DNA of 64,000 bases, from assembly GCF_001027285.1 (NCBI RefSeq), contig NZ_CP011509.1:794501-858500 (forward strand), in the 5' to 3' direction. This stretch comes from Archangium gephyra. GTDB taxonomy: Bacteria > Myxococcota > Myxococcia > Myxococcales > Myxococcaceae. The position numbers and the translations under genes were made by a program. This document shows, one piece after another, positions 2 to 13,626 of the stretch. Within the stretch, counting starts at the first letter, position 1, and every line of letters begins with the position of its first letter. The notes under the pieces were generated by a model. The model worked only from the letters and a program-made list of their open reading frames with translations, had not been told where the DNA came from and searched no databases.

Positions 2-361
2 GTGGGGATGGTGTTCGACTCCGTGGGCGGGGACATCTTCGACCAGAGCCTCAAGTGCCTCGCCCCCGAGGGCCGGCTGCTGGTGGTGGGTTTCGCGGGC
101 GGGCGGATTCCCGAGGTGAAGGTGAACCGGCTGCTGCTCAACAACCTCGACGTGGTGGGCGTGGCCTGGGGCGCCTTCGTGACGCAGAAGCCCCAGCTCA
201 CCTCGGAGATCTCCAAGGCGCTGGCCGCGCTCGCGGACAAGGGCTTCGTGGAGCCGCTGGTGGGCAAGGTGTTCCCGCTGGAGCAGGCGGCCCAGGCCCT
301 GCGCGAGCTGGAGTCCCGTCAGGCCACCGGCAAGGTGGTGCTGCGTCTGCGCGAGGGGTGA
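2..361 (+). CDS. Quinone oxidoreductase / zinc-type alcohol dehydrogenase, C-terminal part
   Basis: The gene is cut by the left edge of the window; only its last 119 residues are present. The fragment starts inside the Rossmann fold (VFDSVGGD, then RLLVVGFAGG) and ends with the family's closing segment (LEQAAQALRELESRQATGKVVL), which matches NADPH:quinone oxidoreductases of the medium-chain dehydrogenase superfamily. These enzymes reduce quinones or other enone substrates in the cytoplasm with NADPH. The GTG at position 2 is not the true start. An acyl-CoA ligase follows after 52 bases on the same strand, so the two may be co-transcribed. The substrate cannot be told from this fragment. Confidence 0.85.
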   Translation: MGMVFDSVGGDIFDQSLKCLAPEGRLLVVGFAGGRIPEVKVNRLLLNNLDVVGVAWGAFVTQKPQLTSEISKALAALADKGFVEPLVGKVFPLEQAAQALRELESRQATGKVVLRLREG

Positions 362-10111: not shown

Positions 10112-10864
10112 TCATCCACCGGTGGTGACGAGGCGCACGGCTTCCACCACGACCTCGGGCTCCGTGAGCTGCGGGAAGTGTCCGCTCCGGTTGGCGATCA
10201 GCTGCTTTCCCCGGGGCGACAGGGCCGTCAGGCGCCGCTGGTGTTCCGCTCGTGCCGCGAGCGCTTCCGCCGGGGTGGCCCAGGCCATGGCCGGTTTGCC
10301 GCCCGTCACGACCACGAGCGGGACGTCCGGGAAGGGGCCCGCTCTCTGGATGAGCTCGACGGTGCGCGAGACGTGTTCCGTCTCTCCGTGCTCATCCTTT
10401 CCGAAGAGTGCATCGAGCGTGCGCTGGGTGAAGCGCTGAAAGCCGCTCTGATGGCTGGCCATGACACCGACGTCCTCGGGCGCGGTGGCATCGAGCAGCA
10501 CCACGCCCGAGACCTCATCCGGGTAGGTCCGGGCGAGGAGATTGACGGCGAGGCCGCCGAGCGAATGCCCCACCAGCACGTAGGGCGGAGACAGGTGGGC
10601 GTGACGCAGCAGCGCACGGAGCGACTCGACGATGACGTCTCCGGTCTGCGCGACCACCGGCTTCCCGCTGCCGCCGAGCCCCGGGCGGTTGTACGCGAAG
10701 ACGGTCCCCAATGCGGACAGCGGCTCCCATACCCGGAGCCATCCCTCGATGGGGCCGCCGGCTCCATTGATGAGCACGAGGGTGGGGGAGCCCTGCCCCA
10801 CGATGAGGTACTCGAGCTCCTGTCCCTGGATGCGGGCCTTCTGCTTGGGAGGAAGTGGCTTCAT
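10112..10864 (-). CDS. Alpha/beta hydrolase
   Basis: A 250-residue soluble hydrolase. The oxyanion region is LINGAGG, the nucleophile elbow is GHSLGG (Ser at about 92), and a catalytic Asp (VLLDATAPED) and a His near the end (RSGHFPQLTEP) complete a triad. This fits esterases, lactonases or haloalkane-dehalogenase-like enzymes; the substrate is unknown. Its ATG overlaps the stop of the upstream HVWNAF-family gene by four bases (ATGA). It is therefore the last gene of the radical SAM operon and may process or transport the product of that system. Confidence 0.85.
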   Translation of the reverse strand: MKPLPPKQKARIQGQELEYLIVGQGSPTLVLINGAGGPIEGWLRVWEPLSALGTVFAYNRPGLGGSGKPVVAQTGDVIVESLRALLRHAHLSPPYVLVGHSLGGLAVNLLARTYPDEVSGVVLLDATAPEDVGVMASHQSGFQRFTQRTLDALFGKDEHGETEHVSRTVELIQRAGPFPDVPLVVVTGGKPAMAWATPAEALAARAEHQRRLTALSPRGKQLIANRSGHFPQLTEPEVVVEAVRLVTTGG

Positions 10865-11631
10865 GCGGGAGGGGGAGCGGTTCTCTCACGCTTCAGTGGC
10901 GGTTGGCACGGACGAAGGAACGCGAGCGGGTCCGTGTCGGGCCAGGCCTCGAACACCTTCACCGAGATGTGCAGGTGGTGGCGGCGGGCGATCCGCTCCA
11001 CGGCGGTGTAGCTGGTGGGGAGCTCCTCGAACACGGCGCCCACCCGCAGCATCGGTTCGCCGAAGCCGTCACCTTCCTTCCACGCGGGGCGCACCTTCCC
11101 ATCCACTCCCGTCACCAGCGGTCCGTCCTCCGCGTTCAGCTCCTCCACCAGCGCCTCGAGCAGACTGCTCGTCTCTTCCTGGCCGTGCTGGCCCTTCCAG
11201 AGCTCGAAGATGCTCACCAGCGGGTGGTGCGCGTGGTCCAGCTCCGTCTCCACCCGGCCTCCCCGGGCGTAGATGAACTCGCCGAGCGTCCGCGGCAGCG
11301 TGAGGGTGTAGTCGTGGTGCACGAACACCTGATGGCCGATGGCCCAGGCCTCCGGCGCCTGCTTCCCGGAGTAGTTCGGCCAGTCCTCCCAGCCGCCGAT
11401 GTCCTCGCCCGCGGTGAGCCCGTGCTTCTGGATGAAGACGTCCAGCGGCGAGGGCCGCTCGGGCTCCTTCCTCTCCGAGTTCGCCGCGTCCCACCAGACG
11501 CCATGGGCCTCCAGCACCTCCTTCAGCTCGGCCGCTACCCGCGCCGCCTGCTCCTCCTCCTCGAACCGGCCCACGATGGTGTAGCTGCCGCTGTTGTTGC
11601 TCGCGAAGGCATTCCAGACATGAAGCTTCAA
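10861..11631 (-). CDS. HVWNAF-family protein, short paralogue
   Basis: A 256-residue protein of a family I cannot name. It begins MKL followed by HVWNAFASNNSGSYTIVG and shares this start and several later blocks with the next gene upstream. The shared blocks are GHQVF, LTLP/LTLQ, HAHHPLVSIFEL versus HAHGDLVSVFEL, EDGPLVT/DDGPLVT, YTAVERIARRH/YTAVETIARRH, and DPLAFLRP/DPLAWLRP. It has no signal peptide or membrane helix and looks cytoplasmic. It lacks the C-terminal extra domain of its paralogue and ends in a Pro-rich tail. It lies in a four-gene operon with a radical SAM protein and a hydrolase, overlapping the hydrolase start by four bases. It may be a partner or substrate of the radical SAM enzyme (inference). 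Confidence 0.8.
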   Translation of the reverse strand: MKLHVWNAFASNNSGSYTIVGRFEEEEQAARVAAELKEVLEAHGVWWDAANSERKEPERPSPLDVFIQKHGLTAGEDIGGWEDWPNYSGKQAPEAWAIGHQVFVHHDYTLTLPRTLGEFIYARGGRVETELDHAHHPLVSIFELWKGQHGQEETSSLLEALVEELNAEDGPLVTGVDGKVRPAWKEGDGFGEPMLRVGAVFEELPTSYTAVERIARRHHLHISVKVFEAWPDTDPLAFLRPCQPPLKRERTAPPPA

Positions 11632-11668
11632 GGTTGAACCTCCTCGCTCCCAGGCCTCGGGCCAGGAG

Positions 11669-12610
11669 CTACTCGGCGGGGCGCAGCTCCGCGTTCGCGC
11701 CGCCCTTGCGCAGGAACTGCACGGCCTGCTCGGCCCGGTCCCGGGTGAGCCGTTTCAGCACCGCGTCTGGGAGCCACTTCAACACCGTGGGGCCGTCGAT
11801 GTATCTGCCGCGCCGCAGCTCCACCAGCCGGCGCGCCACTTCCTTCAGCGAGTGCCCCGCATCGAGAATCCAGACATCGAACAGCTTCCGCGCGAGCGCC
11901 GGATGCGAGGGCCTCAACCAGGCCAGTGGGTCCCCCGGGGACTGGTCCTCGGAGACCCGCACCGTCACCTGCAAGCCATGGCGGCGCGCGATGGTCTCCA
12001 CTGCCGTGTAGCCCGGGGCGAGCTCCAGATCCTGGAACACCGCGCCCAGCGTCAACACCGGCTCGCCAGGCTTGGAGCCCTCCCTCCACGCGGGCTGCAC
12101 ATCGAAGGGCGCCAGCGTCACCAGCGGCCCGTCATCCGCGTACCACTCCTCGACCACGGCCGAGACCGTCGCGGCCTTCGTCTTCTTCGGCAGCGTGCCG
12201 TGCAATTCGAAGACGCTCACGAGGTCGCCATGCGCGTGCCGGATGCGCGTCTCCACCTTCCCGCCCCGCACCCGCAGGAACTCCTCGTACGAGTCCTGCA
12301 ACGTCAGCGTCCACGGGTCGTGCAGGAACACCTGATGGCCCGTGCTCCAGGCGCGCAGCTCGCCCTGGTCCGCCTGGTCCGCCTCGCTCTGCGTGAGGCT
12401 GTGCGCCTGGGTGAACGCCCGCAGCGGTGAGGGCTTCTCCGGATCCTCCTGCCGCGATTCGGGCGACCCGCGCCACCGCTCGTGCGCCTCGAGCACCGCG
12501 GACAGCTCGGCCGCCACCCGCGTGGCGAGCTCCTCGGAGGGGAACCGGCCCACGATGGTGTAGCTGCCACTGTTGTTGCTCGCGAAGGCATTCCAGACGT
12601 GAATCTTCAC
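11669..12610 (-). CDS. HVWNAF-family protein with L7/L12-like C-terminal domain
   Basis: A 313-residue paralogue of the downstream gene. The GTG start at 12610 overlaps the stop of the radical SAM gene by four bases (GTGA) and places the protein at VKIHVWNAF..., matching its paralogue. Residues 1 to about 240 are the shared HVWNAF region. The last 70 residues (FDVWILDAGHSLKEVARRLV ... AEQAVQFLRKGGANAELRP) look like the ribosomal L7/L12 C-terminal / ClpS-like fold. This small alpha/beta module binds translation factors or peptides in other settings. The domain call rests on pattern only. Function is unknown; tight coupling suggests that it works together with the radical SAM enzyme. Confidence 0.8.
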   Translation of the reverse strand: MKIHVWNAFASNNSGSYTIVGRFPSEELATRVAAELSAVLEAHERWRGSPESRQEDPEKPSPLRAFTQAHSLTQSEADQADQGELRAWSTGHQVFLHDPWTLTLQDSYEEFLRVRGGKVETRIRHAHGDLVSVFELHGTLPKKTKAATVSAVVEEWYADDGPLVTLAPFDVQPAWREGSKPGEPVLTLGAVFQDLELAPGYTAVETIARRHGLQVTVRVSEDQSPGDPLAWLRPSHPALARKLFDVWILDAGHSLKEVARRLVELRRGRYIDGPTVLKWLPDAVLKRLTRDRAEQAVQFLRKGGANAELRPAE

Positions 12611-13626
12611 AGCGCCCCTCCCGCGTAGGTCTCCAGCCCGTACCCCGCCACCCGCGCGCAGCCCGGCAGCCTCGACGCCGAGCCCAGCTCCTCCCTCCGC
12701 TCGCGCCACACCGCCATCACGTCCGCCGCGTCCCCCACCGGAATCGCCACGTGGTGGAAGCTGCACGGCATCACCTTCCGGTCACTCGTCAGCACGAGGT
12801 AGTCCCTCCCCGCCCCGCAGTCCGTGCGCCGGAACAGCCTCGGCACCGCCTCCATCCGCTCGCCCCAGCAGACGTCCAGCTTCAGCTGGCTCCGGCCCGC
12901 CAGCGCCCGGCCCAGCAGCTCCACCTTCTTCGCCAGCTCGCCCGCCTGCCCGGGAGTCAGGTGCAGCGCCCGGTCCGCCCCGTTGTAGCTGAGCAGCAGC
13001 ACGTCCCGGCACCCTCGCGACACCAGCTCCAGCACCACCGTCTCCAGCGACGCGAGCCGCTCGGGCGTCACCAGGTAGTTGACGCCAAAGCGCGCCCCCG
13101 CCTCCGCCAGCTCCTCCACCTTCCGCCGCCAGTCATTGTCCTCGTAGAGCGACAGCCGGCACTGTCCGTAGCGTCCCCGGATGGCCGCCAGCCGGCGCGC
13201 GGTGAACGCCAGCCCGTTGGTGGTGAAGCTCACCGCCAGGGGCGTCTCGTCGTACAGCCGGCACACCAGCTCCTCGAAGCGGGGGAACACCCATGGCTCG
13301 CCCCCGCCGAAGGCCACCTCCAGTACCCCCGCCTCCGCCAGCCCCGCCAGCACCTGGAAGGCCTCGTCCGCCGTCCAGGCACTCCGCGCCTCCATGTCCC
13401 GGGAGCAGAAGGTGCACGCCAGGTTGCAGCGGTTGGTGATGCCGAACTGGAGCGCCCTCGGCGCGCGCTGGCGCAGGTGCGCCGTCTCCGGCCCCTCGCA
13501 CAGCGCGTTCAGCCCGCTGTCCCGGTCGAAGAGCAGCAGCCCTCCATCCATCGGGAAGCGGCGCAGGCGGGCAAGCGCCGGCGGGACGGGGACGTGCTCG
13601 AAGGAGGGGAGGGCGGCTGGGGACAT
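12607..13626 (-). CDS. Radical SAM/SPASM-type protein
   Basis: A 339-residue radical SAM enzyme. CNLACTFC (Cys 67, 71, 74) is the CX3CX2C motif that holds the SAM-binding 4Fe-4S cluster, followed by the GGEPW (glycine-rich) motif. A C-terminal part with DCGAGRDYLVLTSDRKVMPC and a late GCARV resembles a shortened SPASM/twitch domain with an auxiliary cluster. Such proteins modify peptides or proteins. It is the first gene of an operon with two HVWNAF proteins and a hydrolase. I see no short precursor peptide gene next to it, so the substrate may be one of the HVWNAF proteins. The ATG at 13626 gives a compact start; the frame is open upstream but there it is Arg/Pro-rich and unlikely to be coding. 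Confidence 0.87.
   Translation of the reverse strand: MSPAALPSFEHVPVPPALARLRRFPMDGGLLLFDRDSGLNALCEGPETAHLRQRAPRALQFGITNRCNLACTFCSRDMEARSAWTADEAFQVLAGLAEAGVLEVAFGGGEPWVFPRFEELVCRLYDETPLAVSFTTNGLAFTARRLAAIRGRYGQCRLSLYEDNDWRRKVEELAEAGARFGVNYLVTPERLASLETVVLELVSRGCRDVLLLSYNGADRALHLTPGQAGELAKKVELLGRALAGRSQLKLDVCWGERMEAVPRLFRRTDCGAGRDYLVLTSDRKVMPCSFHHVAIPVGDAADVMAVWRERREELGSASRLPGCARVAGYGLETYAGGAL

What the first reader, a model, noticed from the sequence alone, without database searches (positions are those of the whole stretch)
10112..13626. Undescribed-looking operon: radical SAM/SPASM protein, two HVWNAF proteins and a hydrolase
Four genes are packed with a GTGA overlap, a 37-base gap and an ATGA overlap. 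A radical SAM enzyme with no visible precursor peptide is coupled to two paralogous proteins of unknown fold that share a near-invariant N-terminus rich in Asn/Ser. That conserved Trp-Asn-Ala-Phe-Ala-Ser-Asn-Asn stretch could be the modified site, with the proteins acting as substrates rather than enzymes. This is inference; nothing in the sequence proves it.
Basis: partly seen in the sequence, partly recalled or inferred. Interest (0 to 1): 0.75.

Follow-up and report, generated by a model that had tools for sequence, protein, structure and literature searches.

The report
Radical enzyme paired with N-terminally tagged proteins
A soil bacterium carries a radical SAM enzyme in tight partnership with two proteins that share an almost unchanging short N-terminal tag; the same enzyme-plus-tag pairing recurs in other bacteria, in plasmid-borne probable anti-phage cassettes and in phages, which suggests an undescribed way of chemically marking proteins.

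Summary
The operon is real and exactly as described. The HVWNAF proteins (here "H") are an obligate partner family of this radical SAM (rSAM) enzyme. In 574 genomes searched with profiles, all 29 genomes with H also have the rSAM, and every intact rSAM gene sits beside an H-type gene or is fused to one. The N-terminus (AFASNNSGSY) is the most conserved stretch of H (0.23 bits per column against 1.9 elsewhere), yet its first 11 residues are unstructured in the predicted fold. H is a diverged relative of DUF6375, which also always follows a related rSAM and is usually followed by an Avs2-like STAND NTPase. More distant rSAM relatives on rhizobial plasmids and in phages pair with unrelated proteins that share only an N-terminal [ST]N[SN]S tag. 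A prospective test gave one tagged neighbour in 15 of 15 viral contigs with intact upstream DNA. Best explanation: the rSAM modifies this tag, so H1 and H2 are substrates. The link is shown; the chemistry is inferred. The hydrolase is a lineage-specific passenger. No description was found in the open-access papers held.

The parts
12607..13626 (-). Radical SAM enzyme, 339 aa, the proposed modifying enzyme
   Evidence: Pfam Radical_SAM 5e-11; 52-93% identical orthologues beside H in 25 other loci
13405..13428 (-). CxxxCxxC (C67, C71, C74), ligands of the SAM-binding [4Fe-4S] cluster
   Evidence: Invariant in alignment A3
12658..12870 (-). Region with C253, C270, C288 and C323, probable ligands of one auxiliary Fe-S cluster (twitch/half-SPASM-like)
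   Evidence: All four invariant in 26 H-linked rSAMs; absent from the DUF6375-linked rSAMs
11669..12610 (-). H1, 313 aa tagged partner, proposed substrate
   Evidence: H family, partner of the rSAM in essentially all loci
12542..12610 (-). N-terminal tag of H1 (residues 1-23, MKIHVWNAFASNNSGSYTIVGRF); Ser14 is the residue conserved in every branch
   Evidence: Lowest-entropy window of the family; residues 1-11 below pLDDT 50
12230..12238 (-). Invariant His-x-His of H1 (H125, H127), after the GG[RK]V motif
   Evidence: Invariant in alignment A2; second-lowest-entropy window 112-127; DUF6375 aligns a GA[KR]IEvySAHxhP end here
11681..11884 (-). L7/L12 C-terminal-domain-like domain of H1 (residues 243-310)
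   Evidence: 1ctf Z 12.3, rmsd 1.3 over 67 residues; Pfam Ribosomal_L12 in 16 of 28 family members, best 1.3e-11
10861..11631 (-). H2, 256 aa paralogue; lacks the L7/L12-like domain that its A. lansinium counterpart keeps
   Evidence: 54% identical to H1; A. lansinium counterpart is 323 aa
11563..11631 (-). N-terminal tag of H2 (MKLHVWNAFASNNSGSYTIVGRF)
   Evidence: Residues 4-23 identical to H1
10112..10864 (-). Alpha/beta hydrolase, overlapping passenger gene, not part of the conserved module
   Evidence: Abhydrolase_1 8.1e-17; found beside H only here and in A. violaceum

Best explanation
A dedicated protein-modification pair. The rSAM enzyme abstracts a hydrogen from a residue in the short N-terminal tag of H1 and H2 (AFASNNSGSYTIVG, core [ST]-N-[NS]-S) and installs a permanent modification. 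The tag residues around Asn12-Asn13-Ser14 are the likely target, with the universally kept Ser14 the best single candidate. The folded body of H (ferredoxin-like part plus, in H1, an L7/L12-like domain) then uses the modified arm. Shown: the obligate pairing, the fusions, the conservation of the tag, and its recurrence on unrelated scaffolds beside related rSAMs. Inferred: that the tag is the substrate, which residue is changed, the chemistry, and the purpose. In the DUF6375 and SMEK branches the purpose probably serves STAND-NTPase (Avs2-like) anti-phage defence.
For: Pairing: rSAM directly upstream of H in nearly all pattern-found loci, 13 of 27 measured gaps being exactly a 4-base overlap. 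In unbiased profile searches of 574 genomes, all 29 with H have the rSAM, and every intact rSAM gene has an adjacent or fused H-type partner. The trees correlate (r 0.79, Mantel p 0.0005). The rSAM-H fusion state needs at least 3 changes on the rSAM tree, although one origin is not excluded by starred branches. Tag: residues 8-23 have 0.23 bits entropy against 1.88 for residues 24-233, while residues 1-11 are below pLDDT 50 in an otherwise confident model (88.5); the tag region is also below 50 in the L033 fusion model. Recurrence: DUF6375 with SEHS; rhizobial 131-aa proteins with DFVSNSSSTSF; Methylobacterium and phage Arash with the tag fused to the N-terminus of the rSAM; neighbours in phages RM378, LMM01 and phiYS40. 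The scaffolds fall into at least four groups without detectable mutual similarity beyond the tag. Prospective test: 15 of 15 viral contigs with intact upstream DNA have exactly one tagged ORF, next to the rSAM; no tagged ORF among 277 control phage ORFs.
Against: No modification has been observed. Fusion of an enzyme with its own substrate is unusual and suits a functional partnership as well. The tag varies between branches (SNNSGSY, GNNSGDC, CNNSSDY, SNHSTSY, SEHSxN), so only Ser14 is common to all. AlphaFold disorder may reflect lack of signal in invariant columns. The auxiliary-cluster cysteines are lost in the DUF6375 branch, so one common chemistry is not assured.
Confidence: 0.6

Rival explanations
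1. H is an obligate non-substrate subunit: its N-terminal arm enters the rSAM barrel as a lid, electron-relay or substrate-presenting element, and the pair acts on a third molecule (for example a translation factor bound by the L7/L12-like domain, an RNA or a small molecule).
For: Stable one-to-one pairing and cis fusions; invariant HxH in H; an L7/L12-like domain in H1, whose ribosomal counterpart binds translational GTPases (established knowledge); one locus in an rtcB-rtcA operon.
Against: The tag recurs on at least four unrelated scaffolds, which points to the short peptide and not the body as what the rSAM needs. The L7/L12 domain is missing in H2 and in several single-H loci.
Confidence: 0.25
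2. A viperin-like enzyme that makes a modified nucleotide, with H or DUF6375 as a nucleotide-handling partner.
For: Viperins are the top Foldseek hits of the rSAM part and pVip is the best PADLOC hit (9.6e-11 for the window enzyme, 1.3e-19 for the Vibrio one); the DUF6375 branch sits in defence-like cassettes.
Against: Far below the NCBIfam viperin cut-off (33.7 against 180 bits). MoaA, PqqE and mycofactocin maturases score as high or higher, and peptide-modifying rSAMs (SuiB, a sactipeptide thioether-forming enzyme, anSME) also rank in the fold search. The H-linked enzymes have four invariant extra cysteines. It leaves the N-terminal tag on unrelated scaffolds unexplained.
Confidence: 0.07
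3. A RiPP pathway in which H1 and H2 are large precursor proteins from which a modified peptide is released.
For: An rSAM with candidate auxiliary-cluster cysteines beside a short conserved motif containing aromatic-x-x steps (W-N-A, F-A-S).
Against: The conserved stretch is at the extreme N-terminus of a large folded protein, not in a C-terminal core; no protease, transporter or leader-recognition gene recurs beside the pair; rSAM and H are fused in many genomes.
Confidence: 0.05

Closest known systems
DUF6375 family (PF19902) with its adjacent radical SAM gene
   Same: N-terminal motif (MKIWxGYGSEHSxNLVMIG), order rSAM then partner, 4-base overlap; rSAMs related (hhalign prob 99.8, E 1.5e-29); DUF6375 aligns over its whole length to H residues 4-132 (prob 78, E 1.7e-5)
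   Different: H is twice as long, has SNNSGSY in place of SEHSxN and often carries an added L7/L12-like domain; its rSAM keeps four auxiliary Cys that DUF6375-rSAMs lack; no STAND NTPase near H. Members score below the Pfam cut-off (best 0.0029)
Anaerobic sulfatase-maturating enzymes (anSME) and sulfatases
   Same: An rSAM that modifies one residue of a partner protein; Ser as a candidate target; anSME appears in the fold search
   Different: H is not a sulfatase and lacks the C/S-x-P/A-x-R motif; the conserved site is an N-terminal arm; enzyme and partner are often fused
SPASM/twitch RiPP maturases (MftC, PqqE, SuiB)
   Same: rSAM barrel similarity and probable auxiliary cluster
   Different: Below every NCBIfam equivalog cut-off listed; no short precursor, protease or exporter
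AVAST type II (Avs2) STAND NTPase defence
   Same: Downstream neighbour of the DUF6375-rSAM pair in 6 of 7 independent loci; a SMEK-NACHT STAND protein precedes the rhizobial pair
   Different: No Avs-like gene near the window operon or the other H loci

Membership tests
Radical SAM superfamily | CxxxCxxC and the Radical_SAM domain above gathering score | tested here: met
   43.5 bits against cut-off 29.5; invariant C67, C71, C74
Full SPASM domain enzymes | SPASM domain above cut-off | tested here: not met
   13.4 bits against 21.5; only four extra invariant Cys besides C43
Viperin | Score above the NCBIfam viperin model cut-off | tested here: not met
   33.7 against 180 bits
Viperin | NTP-dependent SAM cleavage giving ddhNTP | not testable with these tools
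   Needs enzymology
DUF6375 (PF19902) | Score above Pfam gathering cut-off | tested here: not met
   H2 15.4 bits against 27.5; 13 of 28 members match only weakly
DUF6375 superfamily (remote) | Profile-profile similarity over the whole domain, shared N-terminal motif and shared rSAM neighbour | tested here: met
   hhalign E 1.7e-5 over 122 columns; rSAM E 1.5e-29; probability 78, so remote homology is likely, not certain
RiPP biosynthesis | Short precursor peptide with leader and core, plus processing or export genes | tested here: not met
   No conserved third gene in 27 loci; H is a folded 240-330 aa protein
Ribosomal L7/L12 C-terminal domain fold (H1 C-terminus) | Sequence and fold match | tested here: met
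   1ctf Z 12.3; Pfam 1.3e-11 in family members; the H profile hits L7/L12-sized genes in most genomes of the phylum
AVAST/Avs defence system | Avs STAND NTPase in the operon | tested here: not met
   None near H loci at E 1e-4; met for DUF6375 loci
rSAM-maturated protein (anSME/sulfatase-like logic) | Covalent change in the partner protein | not testable with these tools
   Needs mass spectrometry

The most novel reading that the evidence does not exclude
A general, undescribed protein-marking system: one broad rSAM group recognises a portable N-terminal [ST]N[SN]S tag on structurally unrelated proteins and creates a new kind of modified residue there, used by myxobacterial chromosomal modules, by STAND-NTPase defence cassettes and by phages.
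Probability: 0.4. Interest if true: 0.9.

Novelty: new variant of a known kind. Interest (0 to 1): 0.77.

Why it matters
If right, a set of unexplained proteins that begin with S/T-N-S/N-S stretches gains a function: they are tagged for radical chemistry by a neighbouring enzyme. It would add a post-translational modification, possibly one that arms or licenses STAND-NTPase immune sensors and that phages carry too. It gives a Pfam domain of unknown function (DUF6375) and the H family a testable role, and the test, one co-expression and mass measurement, is simple.

Tried and rejected
Operon of four functional partners: rejected, because the hydrolase is absent beside H in all but two Archangium species and no third gene recurs. 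Phage or plasmid origin of the window pair: the H2 sequence found nothing in the phage and plasmid collections, nor did H or DUF6375 in viral contigs. Tag conservation as an artefact of the AFASNNSG search pattern: the first collection scan was biased this way, so it was repeated with profiles; variants then appeared, but N12 and S14 stayed. AlphaFold docking through the natural fusion L033: two alignments failed, the third gave pTM 0.55 with the tag unresolved, so no docking is claimed. Solved-structure search with the H profile: nothing. Viral-contig search with the Arash rSAM: no match. Literature searches for DUF6375, rSAM with Avs2 or AVAST, SMEK with rSAM and the tag strings: nothing relevant; only open-access papers are held.
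Full report
OBSERVATION. The four genes are present as described on the minus strand: rSAM 13626-12607, H1 12610-11669, H2 11631-10861 and an alpha/beta hydrolase 10864-10112, with a GTGA overlap, a 37-base gap and an ATGA overlap. The window is part of a 12.49-Mb single-contig genome; its closest named relatives are Archangium species. H1 and H2 are 54% identical, and residues 4-23 are identical. The rSAM passes Pfam Radical_SAM; SPASM is below cut-off.

PAIRING. A scan of genome contigs with the H1/H2 alignment returned 27 loci in myxobacteria, Melainabacteria/Obscuribacterales and a few others. In all but one, an rSAM lies next to H or in one reading frame with it; the separate ones are 52-93% identical to the window's. 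13 of 27 measured gaps are exactly a 4-base overlap. The exception, L028, has the rSAM elsewhere in the same genome. Because that scan used the peptide AFASNNSG, it was repeated with profiles. In 195 genomes of the window's phylum, 12 hold full-length H (E below 1e-100) and 22 hold the rSAM (E below 1e-35), all 12 included. In 379 genomes of a second group, centred on Minicystis, 17 hold H and 22 the rSAM, all 17 included. Three of these 17 genomes (G196, G197, G200) came from the first scan and are not independent. Every rSAM gene without a separate H is a 500-900 aa fusion whose C-terminal part starts with a related motif, such as VRVWRGFSGNNSGDCVLVGRF. The two exceptions are a gene cut by a contig end (L132) and a broken one (L133). 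In L087/L124 the order is reversed but adjacent. rSAM and H distances correlate (r 0.79, Mantel p 0.0005). On the rSAM tree the fused state needs at least 3 changes, though starred branches do not exclude one origin.

ANATOMY OF H. Residues 8-23 have a mean entropy of 0.23 bits against 1.88 for residues 24-233; the second most conserved window is 112-127 (GG[RK]V, then H125-x-H127). Across the H-type relatives found by profile, N12 and S14 do not vary, N13 is Asn or His, and flanking positions do vary. AlphaFold2 gives a confident model of H1 (pLDDT 88.5, pTM 0.86) in which residues 1-11 are below 50. The middle part is ferredoxin-like. Residues 243-310 are an L7/L12 C-terminal-domain fold (1ctf, Z 12.3), also seen by sequence. 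Other H relatives carry BRCT domains or BNR-type repeats suggesting a beta-propeller instead, so the C-terminal attachment is exchangeable while the N-terminal tag is kept.

A WIDER FAMILY. Weak Pfam hits pointed to DUF6375. In the window's phylum one searched genome holds DUF6375, directly behind an rSAM. All 16 plasmid records with DUF6375 (Vibrio, Deinococcus, Synechococcus, Picosynechococcus; five distinct loci inspected) have a radical SAM gene overlapping it, and a seventh independent locus, L146, agrees. Six of the seven are followed by an Avs2-like STAND NTPase (PADLOC Avs2 1.5e-94 to 4e-113 for the four scanned); the seventh, in D. peraridilitoris, has an IS3 insertion there. Profile comparison joins DUF6375 to H over its whole length (E 1.7e-5, probability 78) and the two rSAM groups firmly (E 1.5e-29). 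The DUF6375-rSAMs lack the auxiliary Cys.

THE TAG ON UNRELATED PROTEINS. A plasmid search with the window rSAM also returned a Rhodobacter rSAM (25% identity over 297 residues). Just upstream of it is a 132-aa protein starting MKIKMDFVSNSSSTSFVYI, behind a SMEK-NACHT STAND protein. Rhizobium and Agrobacterium plasmids have the same arrangement. The Methylobacterium relative carries GHATNSSSSHSIV at its own N-terminus. Among phages, Arash has the tag fused to its rSAM, and RM378, LMM01 and phiYS40 have tagged neighbours of 165-317 aa. The partner proteins fall into at least four groups without mutual BLAST similarity apart from the tag. These tags were found by looking, so a prospective test followed: 16 viral contigs with LMM01-like rSAMs were fetched. 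All 15 with upstream DNA have exactly one tagged ORF, beside the rSAM, including five at 54-61% rSAM identity; the sixteenth is cut. Control: no tagged ORF among 277 ORFs in 100 kb of two of these phages.

MECHANISM. Shown: an obligate, repeatedly fused rSAM-partner pair whose only part shared across all branches is a short N-terminal tag. Inferred: the tag is the substrate. A structural reason for the conservation is less likely because the tag survives on unrelated scaffolds and its beginning is predicted to be unstructured. Ser14 is the only residue kept in every branch, so oxidation, epimerisation or cross-linking at or next to it are the chemistries to test; I do not choose among them. 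The main rival is that the arm is a subunit element and a third molecule is modified.

KNOWN OR NEW. Radical SAM modification of partner proteins is known in kind (anSME, and RiPP maturases). The enzyme lies below every NCBIfam equivalog cut-off listed, H has no family, DUF6375 is a family of unknown function in Pfam, and the open-access library held no description of the pairing, of the tag or of the STAND link. I rate it a new variant of a known kind with a real chance of being more.

Noticed in passing
L136, L137, L138, L140, L141, L146: rSAM-DUF6375-Avs2-like STAND NTPase cassette on plasmids of Vibrio, Deinococcus and cyanobacteria and in two other genomes: a candidate anti-phage system with an rSAM component.
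   Followed up: partly
L147, L148, L149, L151: SMEK-NACHT STAND protein, small hypothetical gene(s), DFVSNSSSTSF-tagged ~131-aa protein and rSAM on Rhodobacter, Rhizobium and Agrobacterium plasmids: a second STAND-rSAM-tag cassette.
   Followed up: partly
L152-L155, L158-L172: Phages (Arash, RM378, LMM01, phiYS40 and large uncultivated ones) encode an rSAM with a TNSSS-tagged partner or fusion; role in infection unknown.
   Followed up: partly
L017:615-6517: rtcB-rtcA-rSAM-H-DUF3556 gene string, linking one copy of the module to RNA repair genes.
   Followed up: no
L085, L086, L087: H relatives with motif VWNSFSCNNSSDYRLVA carry C-terminal BRCT domains or BNR-type repeats in place of the L7/L12-like domain.
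   Followed up: partly
window 10861-11631: H2 has lost the C-terminal L7/L12-like domain that the A. lansinium counterpart keeps; the hydrolase gene begins at the truncation point.
   Followed up: partly
L150:5909-6977: Downstream of the tag-rSAM fusion on the Methylobacterium plasmid lie three further small uncharacterised genes.
   Followed up: no
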